From contig NZ_CP097484.1 of assembly GCF_023546765.1 (NCBI RefSeq), forward strand, positions 6,134,001-6,198,000: a stretch of 64,000 nucleotides of DNA, written 5' to 3'. The notes under the pieces are model-generated. The model made no database searches. It was not told the DNA's origin and saw nothing but the letters and a program-made list of their open reading frames with translations. Shown piece after piece: positions 10,486 to 44,641 of this stretch; position 1 is the stretch's first letter, and every line of letters begins with the position of its first letter. The stretch is from Methylobacterium tardum (GTDB lineage: Bacteria; Pseudomonadota; Alphaproteobacteria; Rhizobiales; Beijerinckiaceae). The translations under genes were made by a program, and so were the position numbers.

Positions 10486-10604
10486 GCAGCTCTGGGCACA
10501 TCCCGCTCGGACGGGTTGGCGGTATAGGGGCCGGACACGGCATCGCCGCAGCGCAGAAGGCGGATCTTGGCGCCTGTAGCGCTACGCCACGAGCCCTTAG
10601 ACAT
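10486..10604 (-). pseudogene. Relic of an avidin-like gene (N-terminal part)
   Basis: Minus-strand fragment starting MSKGSWRSATGAKIRLL and continuing RCGDAVSGPYTANP, clearly homologous to the first 32 residues of the avidin-like protein at 44.06 kb (MFDGVWRSQAGAELRLL, QMGEAVSGTYTAANP). After about residue 33 the similarity is lost. It lies tail-to-tail with the ModE relic, about 30 bases away. No counterpart of the 24-bp palindrome found before the intact gene was seen upstream of 10604. Confidence 0.65.
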
Positions 10605-30203: not shown

Positions 30204-31049
30204 TCAGCGCGTCACAGGCGCGCCGGCGCTCGGGAAGAACAGCTGTTCGCCGCCGACCTTGTAGCCCGCGATCGCCTGCTGCCCCGCCGGTGAGACAAGC
30301 CAGTCGATGAAGGCCTGCCCCTCCTTCGCCTTCACGCCGGGGTGCTTGTCGGGGTTCACCAGCATCACGCCGTAGGGGTTGAACAGGCTCGGATCCCCCT
30401 GAACCAGGATGACCAAGTCGGCGCGGTTCTTGAACGCGAGCCAGGTCCCTCGGTCGGCGAGGATGTAGGCGCCGAGCGCTGAGGCCGCGTTGAGCGCGGG
30501 GCCCATGCCCTGGCCGACATCCCGGTACCAAGGACCGCGCACGGCCGCGAGATCGACGCCCGCCTCCTTCCAGCTGCGCAGCTCGGCGCTGTGGGTGCCC
30601 GAGCGGTCACCGCGCGACACGAACGCCGCCTTGCTGGCCGCGAGCTTGGCGAAGGCCTCGCGCACGCCCAGGCCGCGCACGCCGGCCGGATCGGAGGCCG
30701 GGCCGATCAGCACGAAGTCGTTGTACATCACGTCGTACCGCGTCTTCGCGAAGCCCTCGGCGAGGAACTTGTCCTCGGCCGGACGGTCGTGGACCAGCAC
30801 CACGTCGGCATCGCCGCGGCGCGCGGCGTCGAGCGCCTGGCCCGTGCCCAGAGCGACGACCTTCACGTCGATCCCGGACGTCTCCCGGAAGAGCGGGAGG
30901 ATGTGCTTGAACAGGCCGGACTGCTCGGTCGAGGTCGCCGAGGCGACGACGATCGAGGTCGGTTCGGCGTGAGCCGACGGCAGGAGGCCAGCCGCGCTCA
31001 GGAGCGCGGCCAATCCCAGGGTCAGGAGGCGACGACGGAAGGGGTCCAC
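30204..31049 (-). CDS. tupA: Tungstate ABC transporter substrate-binding protein
   Basis: A 281-residue periplasmic tungstate-binding protein. Signal peptide LTLGLAALLSAAGLLPSAHA, then the anion-binding loop ASATSTEQSG (the TupA family TTTS-x3-SG region), VVALGTGQALDAARRGDADV, YDVMYNDFVLIGP, and the terminal SLFNPYGVMLVNPDKHPG seen in TupA-type proteins. Start GTG 31049 is inferred from signal-peptide position and overlaps the tupC end by 28 bases. The TupA assignment (tungstate over molybdate) is by sequence resemblance, not by measurement. The order tupB-tupC-tupA differs from the usual tupA-B-C. Confidence 0.85.
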   Translation of the reverse strand: MDPFRRRLLTLGLAALLSAAGLLPSAHAEPTSIVVASATSTEQSGLFKHILPLFRETSGIDVKVVALGTGQALDAARRGDADVVLVHDRPAEDKFLAEGFAKTRYDVMYNDFVLIGPASDPAGVRGLGVREAFAKLAASKAAFVSRGDRSGTHSAELRSWKEAGVDLAAVRGPWYRDVGQGMGPALNAASALGAYILADRGTWLAFKNRADLVILVQGDPSLFNPYGVMLVNPDKHPGVKAKEGQAFIDWLVSPAGQQAIAGYKVGGEQLFFPSAGAPVTR

Positions 31050-31732
31050 GGCAATTCCCCAGCGAGGTAGGCCCGCGCCTCGGAGGTGCGGGGCGAGAAC
31101 AGGATCTGGCGGGATGGACCATGCTCGACGGCGCGGCCGGAGGCCAGCACGATCGCCGTGTCGGCGAGGCGCGCCACCTGCCCGAGATTGTGTGAGACGA
31201 GCACCACCGTGGTGCCCGCCCGCGCCATCGCGGACACCAGTCCCTCGGCGATCTCGGTCGAAGCCGGGTCGAGGTTCGCGGTCGGCTCGTCGAGGAGGAG
31301 CAGGTCCGGTTCGACCGCCCAGGCGCGGGCCAGCGCCAGCCGCTGCTGCTCGCCGCCGGAGAACCGCGTCGCGGCATCGCGTGCACGCTCGGCGAGGCGG
31401 ACGCGGGCGAGCGCCTCCTGCACCCGCACGGCGCGCGCAGGACGGGGGAGGCCTCCGAGAGCCAGCGCGACGTTCGCGGCCGCGCTTGCGCGGATCAGCG
31501 CGGGCCGCTGAAACACGAAGGCCCGCCGGTGCAGGCCGACCCGGACCGTTCCGCTGTCGGGTCGCAGGAGCCCGTCGATGACCCTGAGGGTGACGCTCTT
31601 GCCCGCTCCGTTTGGGCCGATGATGGCCGTGACGCTGCCCGAGGCGACCTCCAGGCAGAGATGGTCGAGCACCGTTCGCCCGTCGAGGGACAGAGCTACG
31701 TCTTCGAGGCGGATGGCAGGCGTCGCGCTCAT
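31022..31732 (-). CDS. tupC: Tungstate ABC transporter ATPase
   Basis: A 236-residue ABC ATPase with Walker A IGPNGAGKS, signature FSGGEQQRLALARA, Walker B LLLLDEPTANLDP and H-loop VLVSHNLGQ. ATG 31732 is preferred as the domain begins there; the frame is open further upstream but lies over the permease gene. It energises import by the TupB permease and TupA binding protein. Overlaps the tupB stop by 4 bases. Confidence 0.85.
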   Translation of the reverse strand: MSATPAIRLEDVALSLDGRTVLDHLCLEVASGSVTAIIGPNGAGKSVTLRVIDGLLRPDSGTVRVGLHRRAFVFQRPALIRASAAANVALALGGLPRPARAVRVQEALARVRLAERARDAATRFSGGEQQRLALARAWAVEPDLLLLDEPTANLDPASTEIAEGLVSAMARAGTTVVLVSHNLGQVARLADTAIVLASGRAVEHGPSRQILFSPRTSEARAYLAGELPWTPSVVAS

Positions 31733-32424
31733 CCATACACCCGTGCGGCGTGCCGGCGGAGCAGGGCCACGGCGACGTTCACCACCAGAACGAGGCCGAT
31801 CAGCACGAGGCCGAGCGCCAGGGCGAGGCTGAGATCGCCCTTCTGGGTCTCCAGCGAGATCGCCGTCGTCATCGTGCGGGTATACCCGTCGATGTTCCCG
31901 CCGACGACGAGGACCGCCCCGATCTCCGAGATTGCCCGGCCGAACGCGGCGAGCGCCGCGGTCACGAGGGAGAAGCGCACGTCGTAGATCATCGCCCCGG
32001 CCTGACGCGGGGCGGAGAGCCCGAGGGAGCGCAGCTGCTCCCCGAGATGCACCCGGGCGTCGGCGACGACCTGCTGCGTCAGGGCGGCGACGAGCGGGGT
32101 CGCGAGCGTCGCCTGTGCGGCGATCATCGCGCCGGGGGTGAACAGCAGGCCGAGCGGTCCGAGCGGACCGGAGCGGGAGAGGACGAGGTAGAGCGCGAGG
32201 CCGACGAGCACCGGCGGCAGCCCCATGAACGCGTTCAGCAGGCCGACCACAGCGCCGCGCCCGGGAAAGCGGGCGACAGCCACGCACGCACCCAGGGGTA
32301 TGCCGAGCACGAGACCGATGCCGACGGCGGTGAGGCTGACACGCAGCGACAGCCACGCGATCGCCAGCACGTCGCGATCCAGACTGCACAGGCGGGACAG
32401 GATTTCCTGAAGCGTCTGCATCAT
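31729..32424 (-). CDS. tupB: Tungstate ABC transporter permease
   Basis: A 231-residue inner-membrane permease of the ABC-2/BPD type with around five hydrophobic helices (WLSLRVSLTAVGIGLVLGIPLG, GLPPVLVGLALYLVLS, GMIAA region, AFGRAISEIGAVLVVGGNI, LALALGLVLIGLVLVVNVAVAL). The GRAISEIG segment is the EAA-type contact for the ATPase. Start ATG 32424. First gene of the tupB-C-A operon; its upstream gap (388 bases) is divergent with the MoeA-like gene. Confidence 0.85.
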   Translation of the reverse strand: MMQTLQEILSRLCSLDRDVLAIAWLSLRVSLTAVGIGLVLGIPLGACVAVARFPGRGAVVGLLNAFMGLPPVLVGLALYLVLSRSGPLGPLGLLFTPGAMIAAQATLATPLVAALTQQVVADARVHLGEQLRSLGLSAPRQAGAMIYDVRFSLVTAALAAFGRAISEIGAVLVVGGNIDGYTRTMTTAISLETQKGDLSLALALGLVLIGLVLVVNVAVALLRRHAARVYG

Positions 32425-32811
32425 GCGCCCGGGCCCGTCCTCAGGAAGGGGACGGGGCGGATGGCGCGATCAGCCGATGAGTCCGACCTTGAGACGCAGG
32501 TTCGGCGGAATGGACCTGTCATGCCTACCAGGGAAGCGCGTGCGGATAGTCAGTGAGCATATCGCCCGAGGCGACCGTTGTCGTGGCGTCGGGACGTTCG
32601 GCGAGGCCATCGCTGTCCGTCAGGGATGCGAGCAGTAACCCTTCGCGGGGGAACATGCTCGCCACGGGAGCATCGTCGGTGCCGCATTCCAGGCAGAGCC
32701 GCACGTGTTCTCGCCGACGCTGCTTCTTTCGGTACTCGAACGCGGCGCACGCCGGGTCGACCGCTGCGCCGCCCCTTGATCCTCGAACCCGGATGGCGCA
32801 TCGCCGCCACG
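32425..32811. other. Divergent intergenic region between tupB and the MoeA-like gene
   Basis: 387 bases with no gene of its own. It must hold the promoters of the tup operon and of the MoeA-like gene. A half-site gcatatcgcc (32558-32567) resembles part of the ModE-like palindromes found at 41989 and 43984, but no full 24-bp match was seen. Confidence 0.4.
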
Positions 32812-33903
32812 ATGATCCGAAATGCGTCCTCGGCGCTGATCCCGCTTCGGGAGGCGGCGAACCTGCTCAGCGGCGAAGCTGCTCCCGTCGCCCCCGTGAC
32901 GGTTGCGCTCGCAGCGGCGCTCGGACGCATATCCGCAGGAGCGGTCGTCGCGGGCTCCGACGTGCCCGTGGGCCTGACGGCGATGCGAGATGGCTTCGCG
33001 GTCGATGCCGCTTCGGTGGGCGGTGCGTCGGCCTACGCGCCGATCTTCCTGGGGCGGCCGCCGCCATGGGTCGAGGCCGGACAGCCGCTGCCGTCCGGCA
33101 CCGATGCCGTCTTGCCCCCGGAGGGATTTGTAGACGGCATGGTCGTCGCGGACATCGCCCCGCGGGAAGGTGTGTGTGGAGCGGGCGATGACGTCGCTGG
33201 CAGCGACAGGCTGATCGAGGCGGGCACACGGATCGAGCCGCTTCACCTGCTCGTCTTGGAGGCAACCGGCCTCAAGGCGTTGGACGTCCGTCAGCCACTC
33301 TTGCGCGTCGTCACCGCGGGGGCGTCCAGCCTCGATACCGTGTCGCCCCTGCTGAGGCGTCTGATCGCGCGGGCAGGTGGGACAACCGAGGCCGTTCGCG
33401 CCCAGGGAGTCCGGGACATCGTCGAGGCCATCCGCGGCGGCACGGCAGACGCGGTGCTGGTGGTTGGGGGGAGCGGTTTCGGTCGCTCGGACCAGAGCGC
33501 TGCGGCCCTTGCCATCGCCGGGGAAGTCCGCGCGCACGGCATCGCAATGCGGCCCGGGGAAACCACCGCCGTCGGCTCCGCAGCCGGCAGGCCGGTTCTT
33601 CTGGTGCCCGGGCGTCCCGAGGCGGCACTCGCCGCGTTCCTGGCCCTCGGCCGTCCTCTCATCGCGCGGCTCGCCGGCGCGCAGGACCGCTTGCCGCGGC
33701 GGCACGTCCTCGTACGGAAGATTGTCTCGTCGATCGGTCTGTCCGAAATCGTCTTCGTCCGAAGCGGGCCGGATGGCGTCGAGCCACTTGGCGGAGCCGG
33801 CCTTCCGCTTCGTCGGTTGGTGCAGGCGGACGGCATCATCGTGGTCGAGCCGGAAAGCGAAGGCTTCCGGGCCGGCGAGGAGGCAGAGGTTTGGGCCCTG
33901 TGA
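32812..33903 (+). CDS. MoeA-like molybdopterin biosynthesis domain protein
   Basis: A 363-residue divergent MoeA homologue. It keeps the N-terminal MoeA layout (LIPLREAANLL, LGRISAGAVVAGSDVP, MRDGFAVDA in place of the usual DGYA) and an MPT-binding-like middle (VVTAGASSLDTVSPLLRRL, VVGGSGFGRSDQSAA) followed by PGRPEAALAAFLAL. MoeA inserts Mo (or W) into molybdopterin-AMP; here several conserved positions have changed, so activity is not assured. ATG 32812 is where similarity starts. A decayed copy of its 5' end lies at 11757-11880. Downstream GTG overlaps its stop. Confidence 0.7.
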   Translation: MIRNASSALIPLREAANLLSGEAAPVAPVTVALAAALGRISAGAVVAGSDVPVGLTAMRDGFAVDAASVGGASAYAPIFLGRPPPWVEAGQPLPSGTDAVLPPEGFVDGMVVADIAPREGVCGAGDDVAGSDRLIEAGTRIEPLHLLVLEATGLKALDVRQPLLRVVTAGASSLDTVSPLLRRLIARAGGTTEAVRAQGVRDIVEAIRGGTADAVLVVGGSGFGRSDQSAAALAIAGEVRAHGIAMRPGETTAVGSAAGRPVLLVPGRPEAALAAFLALGRPLIARLAGAQDRLPRRHVLVRKIVSSIGLSEIVFVRSGPDGVEPLGGAGLPLRRLVQADGIIVVEPESEGFRAGEEAEVWAL

Positions 33904-35888
33904 ACGCCGATGCAGACCGTAACGAGGCGGCGGATTTCGCCGAGCGTCTCGCCGCGGCCTCAAGCCAGGAGCAGTTTCTCAGGGTGATGAGCCGGGACGA
34001 TGCGCTCGCAACGTTCCGGGCGGCGGTCCCGCACACGCGCCTGCCTTCCGAGACGGTGCCCTTGGAAGACGCGCTCGGGCGCGTGCTCGCCCGCGACGTG
34101 GCCTCCCCGATGGACGTTCCGCCCTTCGACCGTTCCCTGGTCGACGGGTTCGCCCTGCGCGCGGCCGACACCGAAGGAGCCGGGCCGGCGAGCCCACGGC
34201 GTCTCACGCTGAACCGCGAGATCCTCGCCTGCGGCGTCGCGCCGACAACCGTAGTCCGGCCGGGAACGGCGACGCCGATCTCAACCGGCGGCATGATCCC
34301 TCGTGGTGCCGACGCGGTGGTGATGGTCGAGCACTCGGAATTCGACGCCCGGAGCCTTGCCGTCGATGTCTTGACCGCGGTTCGGCCCGCGCAGTTCGTG
34401 GGATATGCCGGGGCCGACATGGCCCGCGGCGAGACGGTGCTGCGAAAGGGGACGCGGATCACTGCCCGCGAAATCGGTATGCTGGCGGCGTGCGGCCTGG
34501 CGGCCGTCGACGTCACCAGACGCCCGCGCGTCGCGGTCCTGTCCACGGGAGACGAGCTGGTCGCACCGGGCGAGCCCCTTCCCGAAGGCGCGATCTACGA
34601 CTCGAACGGCGCGATCATCGCGGCCGCGGTGACCGAGAACGGCGGGGAGCCGGTTCGGCTCGGGATCGTGCGCGACGATGCTGCCGTCCTCGAGGCCGCC
34701 CTTCGGTCCGCCCTCCAGGACAGCGACCTCGTCGTGCTCTCGGGAGGCACGTCCAAAGGCGCCGGCGACGTCTCGCACCGTGTGCTGTCCCGCCTCGGCG
34801 AGCCGGGAATCCTGTTCCACGGCGTGGCCCTGAAGCCCGGGAAGCCGCTCTGCGTGGCGGTGGCTCAGGGAAGGCCCATCATCGTCCTGCCGGGATTCCC
34901 CACCTCCGCGATGTTCACCTTCCACGACTTCGTCGTTCCGTTCGTGCGGGCGCTTGCCGGGCTGCCGCCGCGGGAGGACGAGACGATCGAGGCGCGCGTG
35001 TCCCAGCGGGTACCCTCCGAGCTTGGTCGCACCGAGTTCGTGATGACCTCGCTCGCCCTCGGTCCCGAGGGGACGATGGCCCTGCCGCTGCCGAAGGGCT
35101 CGGGTTCGGTCACCGCCTTCTCGCAGGCGGACGGGTTCTTCGCGGTTCCAGCCGCGCGCGCAGGCATCGAAGCCGGAGAGGGCGTCGCCGTGGTCCGCCT
35201 GGGCGCCGGCGTTCGGGCGCCCGACCTGACGATCGTCGGCAGCCATTGCATCGGTCTGGACCGGGTGGTCGGCCTGCTCGCCGAGCGCGGCTACCGCGCC
35301 CGCACCATCTGGGTCGGGTCGGCCGGCGGCCTTGCCGCCTTGCGACGCGGCGAATGCGATGTCGCCGCCATGCACCTCTTCGATCCCGAGACGGGCCGAT
35401 ACAATGCCCCGTTCCTCGCCGAGGGGATGTCCCTCGTGCCCGGCTGGCGCCGCCTCCAGGGCGTCGTGTTTCGCCGCGGCGACGTCAGGTTCGAAGGTCG
35501 GGACGCCGCGGACGCGGTCGCCTCCGCGCTCGCCGACCCCGACGCCGTGATGGTCAACCGCAACGCCGGATCGGGCACGCGCCTGCTCGTCGACCGGCTG
35601 CTGAACGGTGCCCGGCCGGCGGGGTTCTGGAACCAGCCGCGCTCGCATAACGCCGTCGCCGCGGCGGTCGCGCAGGGCAGGGCGGACTGGGGCGTGGCCA
35701 TAGCAAGCGTCGCGGATGCCTACGGGCTGGGCTTCCGTCCACTGACGGAAGAGGCTTACGACCTGGCATATCGCGAGGACGCCCAGGGGATGCCGGCGCT
35801 CGCGGCCTTCCTGAGTCTGCTCGGCGAGCCCGGGACGGCCGCCGCGCTGCGCGATCTGGGCTTCTCGCCCGCCGCAGAAGCCGCGTGA
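33900..35888 (+). CDS. MoeA fused to a periplasmic-binding-like (PBP) domain
   Basis: A 662-residue fusion starting at GTG 33900 (GTGA overlap). The first 400 or so residues are MoeA: PPFDRSLVDGFALRA, PISTGGMIPRGADAVVMVEHS, LSTGDELVAPG, VVLSGGTSKGAGD, ALKPGKPLCVAV, LPGFPTSAMFTFHDFV. The remainder is a type-2 PBP/LysR-substrate-like domain: IVGSHCIGLDRVVGLLAERG, GECDVAAMHLFDPETGRYNAP, MVNRNAGSGTRLLVDRLL, HNAVAAAVAQGRADWGVAI. The C-terminal domain resembles molybdate/tungstate-binding proteins, so it may select or deliver the metal. Such fusions are known in other bacteria; their metal preference is uncertain. Next to tupABC, tungsten is the plausible metal. Confidence 0.85.
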   Translation: MNADADRNEAADFAERLAAASSQEQFLRVMSRDDALATFRAAVPHTRLPSETVPLEDALGRVLARDVASPMDVPPFDRSLVDGFALRAADTEGAGPASPRRLTLNREILACGVAPTTVVRPGTATPISTGGMIPRGADAVVMVEHSEFDARSLAVDVLTAVRPAQFVGYAGADMARGETVLRKGTRITAREIGMLAACGLAAVDVTRRPRVAVLSTGDELVAPGEPLPEGAIYDSNGAIIAAAVTENGGEPVRLGIVRDDAAVLEAALRSALQDSDLVVLSGGTSKGAGDVSHRVLSRLGEPGILFHGVALKPGKPLCVAVAQGRPIIVLPGFPTSAMFTFHDFVVPFVRALAGLPPREDETIEARVSQRVPSELGRTEFVMTSLALGPEGTMALPLPKGSGSVTAFSQADGFFAVPAARAGIEAGEGVAVVRLGAGVRAPDLTIVGSHCIGLDRVVGLLAERGYRARTIWVGSAGGLAALRRGECDVAAMHLFDPETGRYNAPFLAEGMSLVPGWRRLQGVVFRRGDVRFEGRDAADAVASALADPDAVMVNRNAGSGTRLLVDRLLNGARPAGFWNQPRSHNAVAAAVAQGRADWGVAIASVADAYGLGFRPLTEEAYDLAYREDAQGMPALAAFLSLLGEPGTAAALRDLGFSPAAEAA

Positions 35889-35991
35889 CGCTTGCAGGGC
35901 TTGCCGGCCTGCGCGGGTGGCGTGCCCCCGACCCGCGATGAGGTGGACCCACCTCGGTGGAACGAAACGGACGATCCTGTCGCTCGCCGGG

Positions 35992-36416
35992 ATGATCGGC
36001 GAGGCCGTTTCGCGTAGGGACGCCTGCGAGGCGCAGGGGCCTCCAGCGAAGCGGCGGTGGGCATTGGGCGAGGACACGAGCATCAGTTTGCGGATCGAGC
36101 TCGGCTCGGACACCTTGCTGGGACCGGGCAAGGCCGCCCTTCTGAGCGGCATCCGCGACACGGGCTCCATCGCCGCCGCAGGGCGCCGGATGGGCATGAG
36201 CTACAAGCGAGCCTGGTACCTCATCGATACGTTGAACAAGGCTTTCCAGGAGCCGCTCGTCTTCGCGAGCAAGGGGGACGCCGCGGCGGCGGGGCGGTCC
36301 TGACGAGCACGGGCGACACCATCCTCGACAGTTACCTGCGCATGGAGCGGCTCGCTTCAGCTGCCGTGGCGGGCGAACTCGACCTTCTCGCTTCGCTCAT
36401 GAAACCCGACTCCTAG
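35992..36416 (+). pseudogene. ModE-type winged-helix regulator (DNA-binding domain only), with a frameshift in a G-run
   Basis: Encodes the ModE N-terminal winged-helix: ELGSDTLLGPGKAALLSGIR, TGSIAAAGRRMGMSYKRAWYL, IDTLNKAFQEPLV. After GDAAA the frame closes at 36303. One missing G in the run 36273-36277 restores RRGGGAVLTSTGDTILDSYLRMERL to the end at 36416. No molybdate-binding TOBE (MopI) domain is seen, so it is a short form and may sense Mo/W indirectly. The start is uncertain: ATG 35992 is given; TTG 36088 directly before RIELG is possible. It follows the two MoeA homologues and may regulate the two 24-bp palindromes. Confidence 0.75.
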
Positions 36417-36764: not shown

Positions 36765-39737
36765 CTACTCGGCGGCCATGGGCGTCGCGTGGACGGCGGA
36801 GGCCCGGGCCGCGCAGAACTTGAACTCGGGGATCTTGCCCATCGGGTCGAGCGCCGGGTTCGTCAGCAGGTTGGCCGCGGCCTCGGCGTAGCAGAACGGC
36901 ATGAAGATCATGCCGACCGGCACGTCGCGGTCGGAGCGCACCTTCAGGTGGACGGCGCCGCGGCGCGTCTCCAGCTTCATCGTATCGCCGGGCTCCAGCC
37001 CGAGCCGGTAGAGCTCCTTCGGGGCCATGAAGGCGACCGCCTCGGGCTCCAGCGCGTCGAGGACGCCGGCGCGCCGGGTCATCGACCCGGTGTGCCAGTG
37101 TTCGAGCACGCGGCCGGTCGACAGGACCATCGGGTAGTCCTCGTCCGGCAGCTCGTCCGGCGGCACCACGGCAGCCGGGACGATCTTCGCGCGCCCGCTC
37201 TCCGTGGGAAAGCCGGCGTAGAAGATGATCTCGTTGCCGGGCTTGTCCGGCGCGTCGACCGGGTAGGTCACGGCGCCCTCGCGCTCCAGGCGCTCCCACG
37301 TGATGTTGTTGAACGACGGCATCACCATGGCCATCTCGCGGAAGATGTCGGCCGGGCCGCCGTAGTTCCAGGGCAGGCCGAGGCGCTTCCCCAGTTCCTG
37401 GATGATCCACCAATCCTGCCGCGCGTCGCCCGGCGGGGACACCACCGGCTGCGAGATCTGCACGCGACGGTCGGTGTTGGTGAAGGTGCCGGCCTTCTCG
37501 GCGAAGGCGGAGGCCGGCAGCACCACGTCGGCGTGGAAGGCGGTCTCCGTCAGGAACAGGTCCTGCACGACGAGGTGGTCGAGCATCGCCAACGCGTGCC
37601 GGGCGTGGTTCAGGTCGGGGTCGGACATCGCCGGGTTCTCGCCCTCGGCGAACATGCCCTTGATCTCGCCGGCGTGGATCGCGCGCATGATCTCGGCGAC
37701 GGTGAGACCCCTCTGCGGGTCGAGCTTCTGACCCCAGAACTCCTCGAACATCTCCCGCACCGCGGCCTTCTCGACCGACTGGTAATCCGGGTAGACCATC
37801 GGGATCAGGCCGGCGTCGGACGCGCCCTGGACGTTGTTCTGGCCGCGCAGCGGATGCAGGCCGGTGCCCGGACGCCCGATCTGCCCCGTGACGAGGGCGA
37901 GCGCGATCAGGCAGCGCGAGTTGTCCGTGCCGTGGACGTGCTGGCTGATGCCCATGCCCCAGAAGATGATCGAGGACTTGGCGCGGGCGTAGAGCCGGGC
38001 GACCTCCCGCAGCGTCTCCGCGTCGATGCCGCAGACCGAGGCCATCTTCTCAGGCGTGAACTCGGCGATCTTCTCCTTCAGCGCCTCGAAGTTCTCGGTG
38101 TAGCCGGCGATGTACTGCTCGTCGTAGAGCCGCTCCTCGATGATCACGTTGAGCATCGCGTTGAGCATCGCCACGTCCGAGCCGGGCTTGAACGCGAGGT
38201 GCTTGTAGGCGTGCCGCGACAGAACCTGCCGGCGCGGGTCCATGACGATCAGCTTGGCGCCGCGCTGCTTCACGGCGTTCTTGAGGAAGGTCGCCGCGAC
38301 CGGGTGGTTCACGGTCGGGTTGGCGCCGATCACGATGATGACCTCGGCGTCGAGCGCCGCCGAGAACGGCGCCGACACGGCGCCCGAGTTCAGCCCCTCC
38401 ATGAGGGCGGCCACCGACGAGGCGTGGCACAGCCGGGTGCAGTGGTCGACGTTGTTCGAGCCGAACCCGAGCCGCACCAGCTTCTGGAAGAGGTAGGCCT
38501 CCTCGTTCGACCCCTTCGCGGAGCCGAAGCCGGCGAGCGCCTTGCGGCCATGCGTGTCGCGGACCGTCTTGAGGCCGCCGGCGGCGCGGTCGAGCGCCTC
38601 CTCCCAGGTCGCCTCGCGGAAGTGCGTCCACGGGTTGGCCGGGTCGACCTGGTCGTTGGCGTCCTTCGGGACGTTGTCCAGGCGGATCAGCGGCGCCGTC
38701 AGGCGGTGGGGGTGGTGGACGTAGTCGAAGCCGAAGCGCCCCTTCACACAGAGCCGGTTGTGGTTGGCCGGGCCGTTCACGCCCTCGGCGTAGACGATCT
38801 TCTCGTCCTTCACCTTGTAGGAGACCTGGCAACCGACGCCGCAATAGGGGCACAGCGAGGTCACCTCGCGGTCGGGATAGACCGTCCGGGTCTTGTGCTC
38901 GGCGTCGAGGTAGGCGGACGGCATCAGCGCGCCGGTCGGACAGGCCTGGACGCACTCGCCGCAGGCCACGCAGGTCGAGCCGCCCATCGGGTCGTCGAAG
39001 TCGAACACGACCTTGGTGCCCGCCGAGCGGTAGGCCATGCCGATGACGTCGTTGACCTGGACCTCGCGGCAGGCGCGGACGCAGAGATTGCACTGGATGC
39101 AGGCGTCGAGATTGACGCTCATGGCCGGGTGGCTGAAGTCGCCGGTCCAGCGCTCGGCCGCGGGAAAGCGGCTCTCGGATACGTCGAGGAAGTCGGCCTG
39201 CACCCAGAAGTGCGATGTCGGGTCGTGCGAGGTCTCGCGCTCGGGCTGGTCGGCCACGAGCAGTTCGAGCACCATAGCGCGCGCCTTGGTGGCGCGCTCG
39301 GTCGCGGTCTTGACCTTCATGCCCACGGCCGGCGTGCGCTTGCACGAGGCGGCCAGCACGCGCTCGCCCTCGATCTCGACCATGCAGGCGCGGCAATTGC
39401 CGTCCGGACGGTAGCCGGGCTCGGGCTTGTGGCAGAGGTGCGGGATGTGGGTGCCGAGGCGCTTGGCGACGGCCCAGATCGTCTCGCCGGGGCCGGCCTC
39501 GACCTGCTGTCCGTCGAGCTCGAAAGCGATGGTCGGGGGTGCGGTCGGCCGCTCCTTCAGATTGTGCAGTCCCGACGGCTCCGGTGCCGCCTGGCCGCCC
39601 GCCTTCGCGCCTTCCGAGTAGGAGCCGCCGGCCTCCGGCTTCGGGCCCGACGCGGGGCCGCCTGCATCCTGCAGCCCGTCGGCCCGGATCTCGGACTTCT
39701 CGGTCTTGTTGCCGTGCTGTTCGGGGGCGTTGCTCAT
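36765..39737 (-). CDS. fdh1A: Formate dehydrogenase 1, catalytic alpha subunit (tungsten/molybdenum)
   Basis: A 990-residue cytoplasmic NAD-linked formate dehydrogenase alpha subunit. After a charged N-terminal tail come a [2Fe-2S] ferredoxin-like domain (C102, C115, C118, C132), a [4Fe-4S] pair region (CIQCNLCVRAC, CVACGECVQAC), the cluster near the active site (C296, C299, C303, C330) and the metal ligand C437 with H438 (DHCTRLCHAS). The bis-MGD domain follows with IGANPTVNHPVAA, MGISQHVHGTDNSRCL and a C-terminal STGRVLEHWHTGSMTRR. I recognise it as close to M. extorquens FDH1 alpha, which carries tungsten. The metal here is inferred, supported by the nearby tup genes. Confidence 0.93.
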   Translation of the reverse strand: MSNAPEQHGNKTEKSEIRADGLQDAGGPASGPKPEAGGSYSEGAKAGGQAAPEPSGLHNLKERPTAPPTIAFELDGQQVEAGPGETIWAVAKRLGTHIPHLCHKPEPGYRPDGNCRACMVEIEGERVLAASCKRTPAVGMKVKTATERATKARAMVLELLVADQPERETSHDPTSHFWVQADFLDVSESRFPAAERWTGDFSHPAMSVNLDACIQCNLCVRACREVQVNDVIGMAYRSAGTKVVFDFDDPMGGSTCVACGECVQACPTGALMPSAYLDAEHKTRTVYPDREVTSLCPYCGVGCQVSYKVKDEKIVYAEGVNGPANHNRLCVKGRFGFDYVHHPHRLTAPLIRLDNVPKDANDQVDPANPWTHFREATWEEALDRAAGGLKTVRDTHGRKALAGFGSAKGSNEEAYLFQKLVRLGFGSNNVDHCTRLCHASSVAALMEGLNSGAVSAPFSAALDAEVIIVIGANPTVNHPVAATFLKNAVKQRGAKLIVMDPRRQVLSRHAYKHLAFKPGSDVAMLNAMLNVIIEERLYDEQYIAGYTENFEALKEKIAEFTPEKMASVCGIDAETLREVARLYARAKSSIIFWGMGISQHVHGTDNSRCLIALALVTGQIGRPGTGLHPLRGQNNVQGASDAGLIPMVYPDYQSVEKAAVREMFEEFWGQKLDPQRGLTVAEIMRAIHAGEIKGMFAEGENPAMSDPDLNHARHALAMLDHLVVQDLFLTETAFHADVVLPASAFAEKAGTFTNTDRRVQISQPVVSPPGDARQDWWIIQELGKRLGLPWNYGGPADIFREMAMVMPSFNNITWERLEREGAVTYPVDAPDKPGNEIIFYAGFPTESGRAKIVPAAVVPPDELPDEDYPMVLSTGRVLEHWHTGSMTRRAGVLDALEPEAVAFMAPKELYRLGLEPGDTMKLETRRGAVHLKVRSDRDVPVGMIFMPFCYAEAAANLLTNPALDPMGKIPEFKFCAARASAVHATPMAAE

Positions 39738-39792: not shown

Positions 39793-41512
39793 TCACTCGG
39801 CAGCCGCGGCGCGCGGGGCGGGGAACAGGTCGGGGAAATACTTGATGACGCTGCTGAGCGGGTTCGAGGCGGCTTGGCCCAGGCCGCAGATCGAGGCGTC
39901 CCGCATGCACTGGGACAGCTCGCCCAGGAGCTCGGTATCCCAGACGCCCTGCTCCATCAGGATGCGGGCCTTCTGGGTCCCCGAACGGCAGGGGGTGCAT
40001 TGCCCGCAGCTCTCGTCCTCGAAGAACCGCATCAGGTTCAACGCGGCGCCGCGCACATCGTCCCGGTCCGACAGGATCACGACGGCGGCGGACCCGATGA
40101 AGCAGCCGTACTTCTCCAGCGTCCCGAAATCGAGCGGGATGTCGTTCATCGACGCCGGCAGGATGCCGCCCGACGCGCCGCCCGGCAGATAGGCCGCGAA
40201 GGTGTGGCCGTCCGCCATGCCGCCGCAATACTCGTCGATGAGTTCTTGGATGGTGAGGCCGGCCGGGGCGAGCTTAACCCCCGGTTCCTTCACCCGCCCC
40301 GAGACCGAGTAGGAGCGCAGGCCGACGCGGTCGTTGCGGCCGTGGCTCTTCCACCAATCGCCGCCCCGCTCGATCAGGTCGCGGACCCAGAACAGCGTCT
40401 CGATGTTGTTGATCAGCGTCGGACGGTTGAACAGGCCGACCTGGAACGGGAACGGCGGCTTGTGCCGCGGCAGCCCGCGCTTGCCCTCGAGGGACTCGAT
40501 CAGCGAGGATTCCTCGCCGCAGATGTAGGCGCCGGCGCCGCGGCGCAGGTGGATACGCGGGCCGCCCTCGGGAAGCTTCGCGATCTCGCGCGTCAGGATC
40601 TCGCGGGAGATGGGGTACTCGTCGCGCAGGTAGATATAGACCTCCGGCGCCTCGGCGACGTGGGCGCCGATCAGCATGCCTTCGAGGAAGCGGTGCGGGT
40701 CGGTGTTGAGGTAGAGCTGGTCCTTGAAGGTGCCGGGCTCGCCCTCGTCCCCGTTGACCGCCATCAGCCGGGGGCCGGGCTCGCCACGCACCGAGCGCCA
40801 CTTGCGCCCCGTCGGGAAGCCGGCGCCGCCGAGGCCGCGCAGGCCGCCGTCGTCGAGCACCTTCAGGATGTCGTCGACCGGAAGGTCGCCGCTGCGGAGC
40901 CGTTCGAGGGTCGCGTAGCCGCCGGCGGCTCGATAGGCATCGTAGTCGACGTAGTCCGGGACGTGGGCGTGCGTGTCGCCGGCCTCGATCGCGGCCCTCA
41001 CGGACGCGAGGTCGGCCTTGTGCAGGAAGTTGTGCCCGACCTCGACGGCGGGCGCGTGGTCGCACAGGCCGACGCAGGGTGCGCGCACGACGCGGACGGC
41101 GTCGGAGGCGAGTTCCCGCTGGAGCGTCTCCAACAATTCGTCGGCGCCGAACATCGCGCAGGTGATGCTGTCGCAGACTCGGACGGTCAGCCTCGGGATG
41201 GAGGCGTCACCCTCCTTCACGACGTCGAAATGCGCGTAGAAGGTCGCGGTCTCGAACACCTCGGCGAAGGCCAGGGCCATCTCGTCGGCCAGCGCCGCCA
41301 AGTGCTCGGCGCTGATCTGGCCGTAGGTGTCCTGGATCAGGTGGAGGTGCTCGATGAGCAGGTCGCGCTGGCGCGAGCGGGAGCCGAGAAGCTCCTCGAT
41401 CTCGACCTTCGCCCGCGGCTCGACCTCGGCGCCCCTTGGGCACGCTGCGCGCCTTGTTCCGCCCCCGGCCGGGATGCGAGAAGGTCCTGACTGTCCCCGG
41501 TGCCTCACTCAT
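39793..41512 (-). pseudogene. fdh1B: Formate dehydrogenase 1, beta subunit (NADH dehydrogenase-like), with an N-terminal frameshift
   Basis: About 572 residues: a fused NuoE-like domain (thioredoxin fold, [2Fe-2S] with CDSITCAMFGAD and CVGLCDHAPA) and a NuoF-like domain with FMN/NAD-binding (GLGGAGFPTGRKW, AVNGDEGEPGTFKD, GAGAYICGEESSL) and [4Fe-4S] CGQCTPCRSG. The natural start ATG 41512 reads MSEAPGTVRTFSHPGRGRN and then KARSVPKG, but the frame is lost at a run of four C/G at 41432-41435; the rest continues in the next frame as AEVEPRAKVEIEELLG. One extra base explains it, so a sequencing indel is quite possible. Transfers electrons from Fdh1A to NAD. The stop-to-start gap to fdh1A is 55 bases. 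Confidence 0.9.
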
Positions 41513-41574: not shown

Positions 41575-41895
41575 CTACTGGCCGCCGAAGGCCCGGAGCG
41601 GCTGGCCGGCCTCGGACCGGTGTTTCATCGCGACGGCTCCCGTCGCCTCGTCCAGGGACGTGACCCTGGGCCCGACGACGGACCGGAGCTCGGTCTCGAA
41701 TGCGTCGAGGGCGTCGTTCAGGCGGTCCATCAGGGAATTCGGGGCGTCTCCGGCCGGGGAAGCGACCGCTTTCGCGAGCACGTCGCGGACTTGGCCGGCG
41801 AGCTCCTGCGTGAGCGGCGGTTTCGCGTCGGCGCAGTAGGCGCCCGTCACGATGTCGGCCCAGTCCGCCGCAGGGGATGCTTGGCCCATGGTCAT
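41575..41895 (-). CDS. Small hypothetical protein upstream of fdh1B
   Basis: A 106-residue protein (MTMGQASPAADWADIVTGAY, then helical LAGQVRDVLAKAVASPAG, NSLMDRLNDALDAFETELRS, ending LRAFGGQ). It is the first gene on the minus strand after the palindrome at 41989, 62 bases before fdh1B, so it is likely co-transcribed with fdh1BA. An alternative start is ATG 41889. No family recognised; possibly a regulatory or accessory subunit of FDH1. Confidence 0.55.
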   Translation of the reverse strand: MTMGQASPAADWADIVTGAYCADAKPPLTQELAGQVRDVLAKAVASPAGDAPNSLMDRLNDALDAFETELRSVVGPRVTSLDEATGAVAMKHRSEAGQPLRAFGGQ

Positions 41896-41988
41896 GCCTG
41901 CGCGATCGAGGGAAGGTTGAAGTCGTGCATGGCGTGCCCGTTCGGGTCCGTTGGCGTGGCGTTCGCTCGTGGCATACCAAATGGCAGC

Positions 41989-42012
41989 CGTTATAGCGCA
42001 GGTGTTATATCG
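41989..42012. promoter_or_regulatory. ModE-like 24-bp palindromic operator, divergent fdh1/mobB region
   Basis: The sequence reads CGTTATAG, 8 bases, TTATATCG. The halves CGTTATAG and the reverse complement CGATATAA fit CGnTATAn, close to the ModE half-site CGnTATAT. It lies 94 bases before the minus-strand gene 41575-41895 (leading fdh1) and 127 bases before mobB, so it could control both. Binding by the ModE-like protein is inferred. Confidence 0.55.
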
Positions 42013-42139
42013 TTTTTGAAGGCGTTTCAATTTGCGCGGGGCCGCAGTCACGCGTCCCGGCGGCGTGACTGATGCTTGCCCTGAGCCGTCGAGCGGGGCA
42101 GTGGAAACGTCACGAGGGAGGCGGTCAGTGGTGTCCGGC

Positions 42140-42658
42140 ATGCGCTTAATCGGACTTGCCGGGTGGAGCGGGGCTGGCAAGACCAACCTGCTGGTTCGGG
42201 CCATCCCCGTGCTCGTCGCCCGCGGGGTGAAGGTGGCGACCATCAAGCACGCTCACCACGACTTCGACACGGACTTGCCCGGGAAGGACTCGTACGAGCA
42301 CCGCAGGGCGGGAGCGAGCGAGGTTCTCGTGTCGTCGGGTCGCCGGTGGGCCCAGGTCCACGAGCTGCGGGATGAGGAGGAGGCGACCCTGGGTCAGCTC
42401 CTGCAGCGGATCAGCCCCTGCGACCTCATCATCGTGGAAGGGTACAAGCGGGAGCCGATCCCCAAGATCGAGGTTCATCGCGCTGGCAACGGCCGCCCGC
42501 CCATCCATCCTCTGGACACCACCATCGTGGGCATCGCGAGCGACGTCGCATTTCCGACCTCGGGCATTCCCGTCGTAGATTTGAACGACGCGGAGGCGGT
42601 GACGGGGCTGATGCTCGACGTGGCCGTTTCGTTCGAAGACGTCCTCGGGAGGCTCTAG
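42140..42658 (+). CDS. mobB: Molybdopterin-guanine dinucleotide biosynthesis protein MobB
   Basis: A 172-residue GTP-binding P-loop protein. Walker A is GWSGAGKTNLL (about residues 8-16), followed by KVATIKHAHHDFDTDLPGKDSY, the R-R-A-G-A segment, LIIVEGYKREPIPKIEVHR (Walker B-type region with EGYK) and a final DLNDAEAV segment. MobB assists MobA in making bis-MGD, as needed by both FDHs. ATG 42140 is chosen; GTG 42131 is possible. No mobA is in the window. Followed by moeA after 4 bases. Confidence 0.88.
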   Translation: MRLIGLAGWSGAGKTNLLVRAIPVLVARGVKVATIKHAHHDFDTDLPGKDSYEHRRAGASEVLVSSGRRWAQVHELRDEEEATLGQLLQRISPCDLIIVEGYKREPIPKIEVHRAGNGRPPIHPLDTTIVGIASDVAFPTSGIPVVDLNDAEAVTGLMLDVAVSFEDVLGRL

Positions 42659-42662
42659 CCGG

Positions 42663-43919
42663 ATGGCCCAGCTCAGCGACGACTGCTTCGCGTTCGGCGG
42701 TCCTCTGATGACCATCGAGGATGCGCACGCGCTGTTCGGCGAGCGGCTCGTCGCGGTCGTCGGCACCGAGGACGTTCCCGTTTTGGAGGCGGACGGACGC
42801 ATCCTGGCCGAGGATTGCGTCGCGCCCATCGACGTCCCGCCGTTCCCCAACTCGGCCGTCGACGGCTACGCGGTCCGTTTCGCGGACCTGCGCGCCTCCG
42901 ATGCGACGGTGCTGCCGGTCGGGGCGGTCGTCGCGGCCGGCGCGTCGTCCGAGGGCGTGTCGGCGGCGGGCTCGGCTACCCGGATCTTCACCGGGGCCCC
43001 GATGCCGGCCGAGGCCGATACCGTCTTCATGCAGGAGGACGTCCACGTCCTGCCCGACGGCCGGGTGTCCTTGCCGCTCGGGCTGAAGCGCGGCGCCAAC
43101 AGCCGCGACGCCGGCGAGGACGCGGCGAAGGGCTCGTCGATCGTCCCGGCCGGCCGGCGTCTCCGGCCGCAGGACCTGGCTCTGGCGACCGCGGTCGGCC
43201 TGCGCACGTTGAAGGTCCGCCGCACCCTGCGGGTCGGCGTGTTCTCGACGGGCAACGAGCTCGTCGAGCCGGGGGCGCCCTTGAGGCCGGGCGCGATCTA
43301 CGACTCGAACCGCATCCTGCTGCTTGCTCTTCTCCGGCGGATGGGCGTCGCGGCGCGTGACCTCGGCGTCATCCGTGACGACCCGGCGGCACTCGCGGCG
43401 AGGCTCTCGGCGGCAGCCGCCGAGCATGACGTGATCCTGACTTCGGGCGGCGTGTCGACCGGCGACGAGGATCACGTGAAGACCGCCGTCGAGACCGTCG
43501 GGCGCCTCGTGTTCTGGAGGCTGGGGATCAAGCCGGGACGGCCGGTCGCGATGGGCATGATCGACGGCAAGCCGTTCCTGGGCCTGCCGGGCAACCCGGT
43601 GGCTGTCTACGTCACCCTGGTGTTCGTCGTGCGGCCGCTTCTCGCCCGGCTCGCCGGCGAGGCTTACGCGCCGCCGCGCGGATTCACCGTCAGGGCGGCC
43701 TTCTCCTATCGGAAGCGCGCGGGCCGCAGGGAGTTCGTCAGGGCCAGCCTCGCTCAGGACGCCGACGGCACCTGGGAAGCCCGGAAGTTCCAGCGCGACG
43801 GCGCGGGCATGCTGTCATCGCTCACTGATACCGACGGCCTCGTGGAGCTGGAGGAGGACCGGATCGAGGTCGTGCCGGGCGACATCGTGCGGTTCCATCC
43901 GCACGAAGCCCTCTGGTAG
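42663..43919 (+). CDS. moeA: Molybdopterin molybdenumtransferase MoeA
   Basis: A 418-residue MoeA with the usual conserved blocks: DVPPFPNSAVDGYAVRF, GSATRIFTGAPMPAEADTV, GVFSTGNELVEPG, LTSGGVSTGDEDHV, GIKPGRPVAMGMIDGK, GLPGNPVAVYVTLVF. It inserts molybdate (or tungstate) into adenylylated molybdopterin. Starts 4 bases after mobB. It is the most canonical of the three MoeA homologues here. Confidence 0.9.
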   Translation: MAQLSDDCFAFGGPLMTIEDAHALFGERLVAVVGTEDVPVLEADGRILAEDCVAPIDVPPFPNSAVDGYAVRFADLRASDATVLPVGAVVAAGASSEGVSAAGSATRIFTGAPMPAEADTVFMQEDVHVLPDGRVSLPLGLKRGANSRDAGEDAAKGSSIVPAGRRLRPQDLALATAVGLRTLKVRRTLRVGVFSTGNELVEPGAPLRPGAIYDSNRILLLALLRRMGVAARDLGVIRDDPAALAARLSAAAAEHDVILTSGGVSTGDEDHVKTAVETVGRLVFWRLGIKPGRPVAMGMIDGKPFLGLPGNPVAVYVTLVFVVRPLLARLAGEAYAPPRGFTVRAAFSYRKRAGRREFVRASLAQDADGTWEARKFQRDGAGMLSSLTDTDGLVELEEDRIEVVPGDIVRFHPHEALW

Positions 43920-43983
43920 CGAAGCCGCACCCAGGGCCTCACCAGACACGAACCGCGCCCGAGCATTGCCGAGCCCGCGCTTC

Positions 43984-44007
43984 CGTTATATCAAATCTGC
44001 TATATCG
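43984..44007. promoter_or_regulatory. ModE-like 24-bp palindromic operator before the avidin-like gene
   Basis: Reads CGTTATAT, 8 bases, CTATATCG, with the same length, spacing and half-sites as the copy at 41989-42012. It lies 50 bases before ATG 44058, in a promoter position. Sharing with the fdh1/mobB copy suggests a common regulator. Confidence 0.6.
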
Positions 44008-44057
44008 CTTGTGATTGGCCGTGCGAACGGCCGCTCGGTCGGCGGGCTTGGGCAACG

Positions 44058-44411
44058 ATGTTCGATGGTGTCTGGCGGAGCCAAGCAGGCGCGGAACTTC
44101 GCCTCCTCCAGATGGGCGAGGCCGTCTCCGGGACCTACACCGCCGCCAATCCCGGCTTTGCGCAGACGAGTCGAAGCCGCATCCTCGTCGGCACGGCCGA
44201 GGGCGACATCATCGGCTTCGTGACCAGCACGTCGTCGCCACAGGAAATCACGGCCTGGACCGGGCGTCTCGTCCGGGCCGACGAAAAAACGGCCGAGGAG
44301 ATCCACGCGGTCTTCCATGCCGTCGAACGGTGTGCGCAGCCGAAGGCCGTGGACAGTCACATCGCGCTCGAAACGACCATCTTCTCAAAGGTCGAGAACG
44401 CCTGTTCATAA
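44058..44411 (+). CDS. Avidin/streptavidin-fold protein with altered biotin site
   Basis: A 117-residue protein (no signal peptide) that aligns by eye with streptavidin: GVWRSQAGAEL (GTWYNQLGSTF), SGTYTAANPG (TGTYESAVG), RSRILVGT (RYVLTGR), IIGFVTST (LGWTVAW), TAWTGRLV (TTWSGQYV), IHAVFHAV (INTQWLLT) and TTIFSKV (HDTFTKV). Retained: Trp6, Tyr27, Trp67. Lost: positions equivalent to streptavidin Asn23, Ser27, Trp79, Trp108, Trp120 and Asp128 are Ser, Ala, a non-Trp residue, Phe, His and Thr. Biotin binding is therefore doubtful and the ligand may differ. Context is unusual: 50 bases downstream of a ModE-like palindrome and 138 bases after moeA; a relic of the same gene sits beside a ModE relic at 10.5 kb. 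Confidence 0.75.
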   Translation: MFDGVWRSQAGAELRLLQMGEAVSGTYTAANPGFAQTSRSRILVGTAEGDIIGFVTSTSSPQEITAWTGRLVRADEKTAEEIHAVFHAVERCAQPKAVDSHIALETTIFSKVENACS

Positions 44412-44641
44412 AGGCAGAGCCTTGTCCCTCCTCGATCTTGTTCTGAGGAACGGGAGGCGAAATCGAAGCGACGCGCGGTCGGCGCATCGATTGCCGACAA
44501 ACATCGGCTTTCCCTCACCGCAACCGTTCCTAACCCCAGCACAGGACGCGCCGCAGCCTCGCCGAGCGCGGCCGTTGACGCCGGCTCTGGCCCCGGCTTT
44601 GCTGGAGGCCGAAACCCCAAGGCCACGAGAGCCCCAACCCA

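What the first reader, a model, noticed from the sequence alone, without database searches (positions are those of the whole stretch)
43984..44411. Avidin-fold protein without a biotin pocket in a Mo/W-linked locus
The gene product shows the whole avidin strand pattern, from GVWRSQAG through SGTYTAANPG and TAWTGRLV to TTIFSKV, but positions equivalent to Asn23, Ser27, Trp79, Trp108, Trp120 and Asp128 of streptavidin are not conserved. It sits directly after moeA behind a ModE-like palindrome. An avidin barrel repurposed for a pterin, metal-cofactor or other ligand in this context would be new; biotin binding looks unlikely. Alignment is by eye.
Basis: partly seen in the sequence, partly recalled or inferred. 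Interest (0 to 1): 0.75.

Follow-up and report, generated by a model that had tools for sequence, protein, structure and literature searches.

The report
Non-biotin avidin in tungsten formate locus
A small protein built like avidin but lacking the usual biotin-gripping residues sits, behind a molybdenum-type control sequence, beside formate dehydrogenase and tungsten or molybdenum genes in many of the Methylobacterium genomes that carry it, which suggests that the avidin barrel has been put to a new use in metal-enzyme biology.

The parts
44058..44411 (+). avidin-fold gene, 117 aa, no N-terminal hydrophobic signal by inspection (MFDGVWRSQ...)
   Evidence: purifying selection among 8 close sequences, pairwise dN/dS 0.11-0.41
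43984..44007 (.). ModE-type palindrome CGTTATATCAAATCTGCTATATCG, starting 74 nt upstream of the avidin-gene ATG
41989..42012 (.). second exact ModE-type palindrome, between the 106-aa gene/fdhBA (-) and mobB-moeA (+)
42663..43919 (+). moeA; carries Arg293 (PGRP motif) and Ala314 (LPGNPVA motif), which I equate, at an offset of two, with R291/A312 reported for the tungsten-selective MoeA1 of M. extorquens
   Evidence: PMC13197769 passages; the equivalence is inferred from residue and spacing, no MoeA1 sequence was fetched
42131..42658 (+). mobB (start codon uncertain)
41575..41895 (-). conserved 106-aa protein of unknown family, directly upstream of fdhB
   Evidence: no Pfam or NCBIfam match (105-aa reading); 45 of 111 genus genomes with a match of 66 bits or more
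39793..41508 (-). fdhB-type NuoE/NuoF fusion (start uncertain: relatives match only from residue 13-16)
36765..39737 (-). fdhA, 990 aa, formate dehydrogenase alpha (TIGR01591, 731 bits against cut-off 666)
35917..36303 (+). single-domain ModE-type regulator (TIGR00637 44.5 bits, below its cut-off of 98.5); reading frame interrupted near 36270-36300 compared with relatives
33987..35888 (+). MoeA fused to a PBP-like domain
32785..33903 (+). divergent MoeA-like protein
31729..32424 (-). TupB-like ABC permease (162.6 bits to TupB, below its equivalog cut-off of 320; no Pfam match)
31022..31672 (-). ABC ATPase next to the tup-like genes
30204..31049 (-). TupA-like tungstate-binding protein (203.5 bits, below its equivalog cut-off of 400)
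10491..10604 (-). degraded second copy of the same avidin-like family (residues 1-38 only, then frame lost)

Best explanation
This is a cytosolic, non-biotin member of the avidin family that belongs to a Mo/W-controlled formate dehydrogenase system. Shown here: avidin fold; replacement of the biotin contacts; one clade, whose named members are all Methylobacterium or Methylorubrum; repeated proximity to FDH and Mo/W genes; a conserved ModE-type palindrome in front of the gene. Inferred: a ModE-family regulator binds the palindrome and ties expression to molybdate or tungstate status. The barrel keeps the pocket residues Trp21, Tyr43 and Trp92, has lost the three other tryptophans, and carries a near-constant Arg at the Tyr54 position and an invariant Arg (R39) in the loop before strand 4. 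It holds a polar or anionic molecule of this pathway (tungstate/molybdate, a pterin-cofactor intermediate, or formate/bicarbonate) and buffers it or hands it to the MoeA1-MobB pair or the FDH. It is accessory, not essential, because 31 of 44 genomes with this fdhB have no avidin gene beside it. I give about 0.8 to 'not a normal biotin binder', about 0.75 to 'works in the Mo/W-FDH regulon', and about 0.25 to any one ligand class.
For: Fold. Pocket: in 18 family rows S27, W79, W108 and W120 are kept in 0, N23 in 6, D128 in 4, while W21, Y43 and W92 are kept in 18; 12 of 12 hand-picked biotin-type bacterial avidins keep N23, S27, Y43, W108, W120 and D128. One clade, support 100/99. Linkage: 17 of 18 genomes have an FDH gene 0.7-2.6 kb away. 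Palindrome: 17 of 18 within 150 nt, at most 1 mismatch, against 0 of 3 biotin-type avidins; half-sites 1.78 bits against 0.52-0.53 in the flanks over 8 representatives. Palindrome identity: of 30 exact copies in 111 genomes, 10 precede this gene, 9 lie before the 106-aa gene/mobB, and 9 lie within 100 nt of a modE-like match. Tungsten context: MoeA1-like residues, tup-like genes, published W pathway (PMC13197769). Named examples: pCMU01 and pMRAD01. Pocket columns vary less than the rest, mean entropy 1.11 against 1.54 bits.
Against: No ligand, binding or expression data exist here. Neighbourhood and palindrome are linkage evidence, not function. The FDH next door is metal-independent in 4 genomes, and in one of these (G306) I recognised no Mo gene from the starts of the called ORFs in the 15 kb around it (no mobB or moeA match), so the common theme may be formate rather than metal. 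The gene is present in only 18 of 111 genomes; fdhB of this type occurs in 44, of which 13 have the avidin gene beside it, so W-FDH evidently does without it. In G368 a contig end hides the upstream side and none of the window's FDH, mobB or moeA proteins matches the 7.4 kb on the other side. At 1 or 2 mismatches the palindrome is no commoner genome-wide than its reversed control (31 against 44 in the own genome; 42 against 50 in 32 genomes), so only the exact copies and the positions are informative; even for exact copies the reversed control gives 11 against 30. R39 lies in a low-confidence loop of the model. The pCMU01 copy, which is not among the 18 rows, has Cys where the others have Tyr43. 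The entropy difference includes structural core residues and was not tested for significance.
Confidence: 0.55

Rival explanations
1. The barrel binds no small molecule. Like the avidin domain of fibropellin it serves protein assembly, for instance as a small scaffold or chaperone for MoeA1-MobB or for the FDH.
For: Loss of both H-bonding and aromatic contacts; [quoted passage not shown] Residues outside the pocket positions that I listed are also strongly conserved (for example Q18, E21, E81). The pCMU01 copy has lost even Tyr43.
Against: Pocket residues W21, Y43 and W92 are invariant in 18 of 18 rows, which a pure scaffold would not obviously need.
Confidence: 0.2
2. It is a partner or sensor for the single-domain ModE regulators. 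These appear to lack the molybdate-binding domain of E. coli ModE (recalled), so the barrel could sense the metal or cofactor and act on ModE.
For: The ModE-type proteins looked at are short: 115-aa ORF in L043, and C-termini soon after the HTH domain in L039 and L040. A ModE-type match lies 6.0-7.7 kb from the avidin gene in 10 of the 13 W-type loci and a degraded one 5.4 kb away in an eleventh; 12 of the 14 genomes that I grouped as ModE2 carry the avidin gene.
Against: 102 of 111 genomes have a modE-like match at E <= 1e-3 (weak ones are probably ordinary LysR-type regulators) and only 18 have the avidin gene. The ModE2 grouping was post hoc and includes that degraded copy. The window's own ModE2 frame is interrupted.
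Confidence: 0.1
3. It is a weak or altered biotin(-derivative) binder that travels with an accessory island.
For: Basal clade members keep N23 and D128; the gene lies on plasmids in M. radiotolerans, M. oryzae and M. extorquens CM4; the 2021 survey warns that biotin binding cannot be judged reliably from such changes without biochemistry (PMC8033661 passage).
Against: W79, W108 and W120 are gone in all 18 rows. Two substitutions (Trp70 to Arg and Trp110 to Lys) were enough to virtually abolish biotin binding of chicken avidin according to PMC8033661; here the changes are to other residues. No signal peptide by inspection. A ModE-type palindrome in front has no obvious place in a biotin-antagonist role.
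Confidence: 0.1
4. Passenger: the gene rides in Mo/W-FDH islands without functional connection.
For: Patchy occurrence (18 of 111), plasmid carriage and a degraded second copy in the window.
Against: It sits at two different kinds of FDH locus yet keeps the palindrome at nearly the same distance while the flanks diverge; purifying selection.
Confidence: 0.05

Closest known systems
Biotin-binding bacterial avidins (streptavidin, shwanavidin, afifavidin, rhizavidin) and zebavidin
   Same: Eight-stranded barrel, Pfam PF01382, W21/Y43/W92 framework
   Different: N23, S27, W79, W108, W120 and D128 replaced in the window protein; no signal peptide by inspection; ModE-type palindrome and FDH/Mo/W neighbourhood
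'Metavidins' of the 2021 bacterial-avidin survey (PMC8033661; passages read)
   Same: [quoted passage not shown] the survey's enrichment set includes M. extorquens CP001298-1300, and strain CM4 carries a family member on pCMU01 (that these accessions are strain CM4 is recalled)
   Different: I could not read the supplement that lists the clade, so identity is likely but unproven. The survey took 500 bp of flank, reports GO terms for DNA processing, mobile elements and defence, and concludes that there is no clear pathway association; its main text has no hit for 'formate' or 'molybdenum'
Fibropellin avidin-like domain (cited in PMC8033661)
   Same: Avidin fold without biotin binding
   Different: Described in the cited title as an extracellular mosaic protein; no metal or FDH link known to me
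Tungsten-specific MoeA1-MobB maturation pathway of MeFDH1 (PMC13197769; abstract and passages)
   Same: The window holds mobB, a moeA with Arg/Ala at the positions that I equate with R291/A312, fdhAB of that type and tup-like transporter genes
   Different: The main text has no hit for 'avidin'; the avidin gene is an extra, optional member found here

Membership tests
Avidin family (PF01382, homology and fold) | Profile match above curated cut-off | tested here: met
   30 bits against 24 for the window protein; some relatives below it
Avidin family (PF01382, homology and fold) | Eight-stranded avidin barrel | tested here: met
   [not shown]
Biotin-binding avidins | H-bond residues N23, S27, Y43, D128 | tested here: not met
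   S8, A12, Y27, T107 in the window protein; only Y43 kept
Biotin-binding avidins | Aromatic box W79, W92, W108, W120 | tested here: not met
   only W92 kept; the other three lost in 18 of 18 rows (W79 by the hand-corrected match)
Biotin-binding avidins | Measured biotin binding | not testable with these tools
   needs purified protein
Metavidin clade (PMC8033661) | Named member of that clade | tested here: inconclusive
   clade list is in a supplement that could not be read; the CM4 family member suggests identity
ModE regulon | ModE-type palindrome at the promoter | tested here: met
   17 of 18 genes within 150 nt, at most 1 mismatch; the E. coli ModE consensus itself is recalled, not searched; the promoter itself was not located
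ModE regulon | ModE-type regulator encoded in the genome | tested here: met
   TIGR00637 94 bits for the L043 protein, just under its cut-off of 98.5
ModE regulon | ModE binding and Mo/W-dependent transcription | not testable with these tools
   needs EMSA/footprint and RNA data
W-FDH (MeFDH1) maturation cluster | mobB plus moeA with R291/A312 equivalents | tested here: met
   R293 and A314, spacing 21, in the window and 7 relatives; equivalence inferred
W-FDH (MeFDH1) maturation cluster | Avidin protein required for FDH activity | not testable with these tools
   31 of 44 genomes with this fdhB have no avidin gene beside it, which argues against strict need

The most novel reading that the evidence does not exclude
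The avidin barrel has been converted into a tungsten/molybdenum-pathway binding protein: a cytosolic carrier or sensor for tungstate/molybdate or a W/Mo-pterin intermediate, switched by single-domain ModE regulators and working with MoeA1-MobB and formate dehydrogenase. It would, as far as I know, be the first avidin with a physiological non-biotin ligand in metal-cofactor biology.
Probability: 0.25. Interest if true: 0.9.

Novelty: new variant of a known kind. Interest (0 to 1): 0.72.

Why it matters
Avidins are known almost only as biotin binders, and the natural role of bacterial avidins is an open question. This clade gives a strong genomic clue to a different role: expression apparently tied to Mo/W status and a seat inside what looks like the tungsten pathway of an FDH that is wanted for CO2 reduction and is hard to produce outside its host (abstract of PMC13197769; start of the abstract of PMC13396061). 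If the protein carries or senses the metal or cofactor, it could matter for producing active W-FDH, and it gives a test of how a famous ligand pocket is rebuilt.

Tried and rejected
Rejected: 'mis-called ORF' (conserved start, dN/dS 0.11-0.41). Rejected: 'link only to moeA' (5 of the 13 fdh1-type loci have no moeA match in the 15 kb fetched). Rejected: 'box found anywhere in a GC-rich genome' (exact copies 2 against 0 for the reversed control in the own genome; 30 against 11 over 111 genomes), with the caveat that at 1-2 mismatches there is no genome-wide excess (31 against 44; 42 against 50). Rejected: 'secreted biotin antagonist' (no hydrophobic N-terminus by inspection; no signal-peptide program was run).

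Led nowhere: promoter scan of 41850-44700 found no sigma-70-type site; no Rfam family at gathering threshold in 26-50 kb; searching 397 order genomes found no match outside the genus, and 298 family genomes gave one outside it, G272, a biotin-type avidin by sequence. In those two searches only 15 or 11 first-look candidates per genome were scored, so absence elsewhere is not proven; one search returned no paper. The direction of ModE control (repression or activation) could not be read from the sequence.

Counting notes: one search lists 20 of 111 genomes (at most 41 candidates per genome scored); I left out G083 and G345 because they keep the biotin residues. In one search I used 12, and 15, of the 120 listed of 282 biotin-type avidins, chosen by hand. 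The 18 rows are 15 of A2 plus P0012-P0014, not the same set as the 18 genomes: L032, L034 and L035 are not among the rows, and the pCMU01 copy (Cys at Tyr43) is in neither set. The footprint used 8 of the 18 and leaves out the exception L042. Entropies use 10 representatives. Fisher values are not corrected for relatedness. In L038 the mobB match comes in three pieces and in L045 the moeA match is partial.

The odds did not change. One search was a filing with a format error.

Full report

The pocket. Against streptavidin (typed, verified) and 12 hand-picked biotin-type bacterial avidins, the window protein has S8 for N23, A12 for S27, T58 for W79, F86 for W108, D99 for W120 and T107 for D128, while W6, Y27 and W67 keep W21, Y43 and W92 (the W79 column was corrected by eye). 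Over 18 family rows S27, W79, W108 and W120 are kept in none, N23 in 6 and D128 in 4. The four rows that keep D128 (L046, L047, P0013, P0014) form one side of the deepest split in the clade on the midpoint-rooted tree. So the loss looks stepwise. R39 (before strand 4, in the low-confidence loop) is invariant, and R41, at the Tyr54 position, is Arg in 15 of 18. I read this as a hint of an anionic or oxo ligand; it is not a result. Against a tightly kept pocket, the copy on pCMU01, outside the 18 rows, has Cys at Tyr43.

The clade. A search of the protein database with the alignment gives 15 proteins at E <= 1e-3; the named ones are all Methylobacterium or Methylorubrum. In the genus, 20 of 111 genomes match; two of these (G083, G345) are ordinary biotin-type avidins, leaving 18. 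A maximum-likelihood tree sets the 18 rows apart from 16 biotin-type rows with 100/99 support (the streptavidin branch is very long). Eight close sequences are under purifying selection, pairwise dN/dS 0.11-0.41.

The neighbourhood. In 8 of the 18 genomes the order is fdhA-fdhB-(106-aa protein) divergent from mobB-moeA-avidin gene, as in the window; in 5 more the gene sits beside fdhAB, with mobB in three of them (in pieces in L038) and no moeA match in the 15 kb. The fdhB gene lies 0.7-2.6 kb from the avidin gene in these 13. In 4 the avidin gene lies about 1 kb from a metal-independent NAD-FDH. Three of these four (L043, L044, L045) also have a single-domain ModE-type gene, DUF2478 and an HPP-type membrane protein; L043 and L044 further have a moeA relative (37% identity), a DUF2325 protein and an ORF that I read as modA from its sequence, whereas L045 has only a partial moeA match. 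The named relative on pCMU01 of M. extorquens CM4 has annotated modABC, DUF2478, DUF2325, winged-helix regulator and glp/moeA nearby, no FDH in the 18 kb shown, and the avidin gene itself is not in the gene table used, which is known to be incomplete. In G306 (L046) NAD-FDH is the only link that I recognised. G368 is cut by a contig end. NAD-FDH occurs in 14 of 111 genomes, in 7 of the 18 with the avidin gene (Fisher p 0.0016, not corrected for relatedness). fdhB of the window type occurs in 44 of 111 genomes, in 16 of the 18 with the avidin gene; 31 of the 44 have no avidin gene beside it.

The window island. Between 30.2 and 44.4 kb lie a TupA/TupB-like ABC transporter with an ATPase (matches below the curated TupA and TupB cut-offs), two further MoeA-type proteins, a ModE-type regulator, fdhAB, mobB, moeA and the avidin gene. 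The same order is annotated, under general names for the transporter, on plasmid pMRAD01 of M. radiotolerans. PMC13197769 (abstract and passages) reports that moeA1, mobB and fdhD are essential for W insertion into MeFDH1 of M. extorquens AM1, names a moeA1-mobB-tupBCA cluster, and ties W preference to R291 and A312 of MoeA1. The window moeA has R293 and A314 with the same spacing, as do 7 relatives. This makes a tungsten island likely; orthology was inferred from these residues and gene content, as no AM1 sequence was fetched.

The palindrome. CGNTATA-N10-TATANCG was drawn up by me from the sites upstream of this gene seen. In the 150 nt before the start codon 17 of 18 genes have it with at most 1 mismatch at -69 to -84, each with 0 of 500 shuffles as good; 0 of 3 biotin-type avidins have it. 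Because the pattern was drawn from these sites, the shuffles overstate the surprise; the modE and fdh positions below are the independent test. The exception (L042) has a 1-mismatch copy 173 nt before its ATG, in the intergenic region shared with the 106-aa gene. Over 8 representatives the half-sites hold 1.78 bits per column, the flanks 0.52-0.53 (the rows were centred on the best match, which favours the half-sites). The exact pattern occurs twice in the window genome, both in this locus, and at 30 places in 21 of 111 genomes, against 11 places for the reversed control: 10 before the avidin gene, 9 before the 106-aa gene/mobB, 9 within 100 nt of a modE-like match, one 1.4 kb from such a match (G049), one unassigned (G323; 10.5 kb from a NAD-FDH on the same contig). 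Among 32 genomes with a 106-aa gene that has no avidin gene beside it, 6 have a 1-mismatch copy 66-87 nt before the match to that gene, so the control sequence at fdh1 does not depend on the avidin gene; the other 26 have none there at this threshold. On pCMU01 further copies at 1 mismatch lie before a TonB-dependent receptor gene, DUF2478 and between the ModE-type and DUF2325 genes. That this is a ModE operator rests on its position at modE genes and on the E. coli consensus as I recall it; binding was not tested.

Reading. The gene is found both at W-FDH and at NAD-FDH/molybdate loci and has an FDH nearby in 17 of 18, and the palindrome within 150 nt in 17 of 18. That argues for a role in the Mo/W-FDH system rather than for hitch-hiking. 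Its absence from 31 of 44 fdhB loci says that the role is accessory. The invariance of W21, Y43 and W92 in the 18 rows with loss of the other biotin contacts argues for a different ligand, without naming it.

Prior knowledge. PMC8033661 (passages) defined 11 bacterial avidin clades, doubted biotin binding in 'Metavidins', and saw no clear association with distinctive processes, though GO terms for mobile elements and defence were enriched. That likely covers this clade, so 'avidin without a biotin site' is not new as such. The Mo/W/FDH link was not found in print by searches of the open full-text library (listings read, three papers opened: PMC8033661, PMC8969499, PMC13197769, in passages); most subscription papers, and bioRxiv preprints, are not held there.

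Noticed in passing
window 10491-10604 (-): Degraded second copy of the same avidin-like family in the same window: residues 1-38 align, then the frame is lost.
   Followed up: partly
window 35917-36416 (+): The ModE-type regulator's frame is interrupted near 36270-36300, whereas the two relatives read (L039, L040) have an open frame; natural change or sequencing error in a G-rich run. A second modE-like match lies elsewhere in the genome.
   Followed up: partly
window 15488-16237 (+): A biotin/lipoate protein ligase family protein (PF16917, 211.7 bits) lies a few kb from a second, membrane-type FDH in the window; another biotin-related fold near an FDH.
   Followed up: no
window 41575-41895 (-): A conserved 106-aa protein with no Pfam or NCBIfam match precedes fdhB; 45 of 111 genus genomes have a match of 66 bits or more, some with a second copy. 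Possible unknown FDH subunit or maturation factor.
   Followed up: partly
L122 2587-2610: On pCMU01 a 1-mismatch ModE-type palindrome lies before a TonB-dependent receptor gene, which hints at outer-membrane uptake of a Mo complex.
   Followed up: no
L043 8891-10057, L046 8762-9928 and the places: Metal-independent NAD-FDH (14 of 111 genomes) lies within 5 kb of a modE-like match in 9 of the 14: a possible Mo/W-free stand-in enzyme under Mo control.
   Followed up: partly
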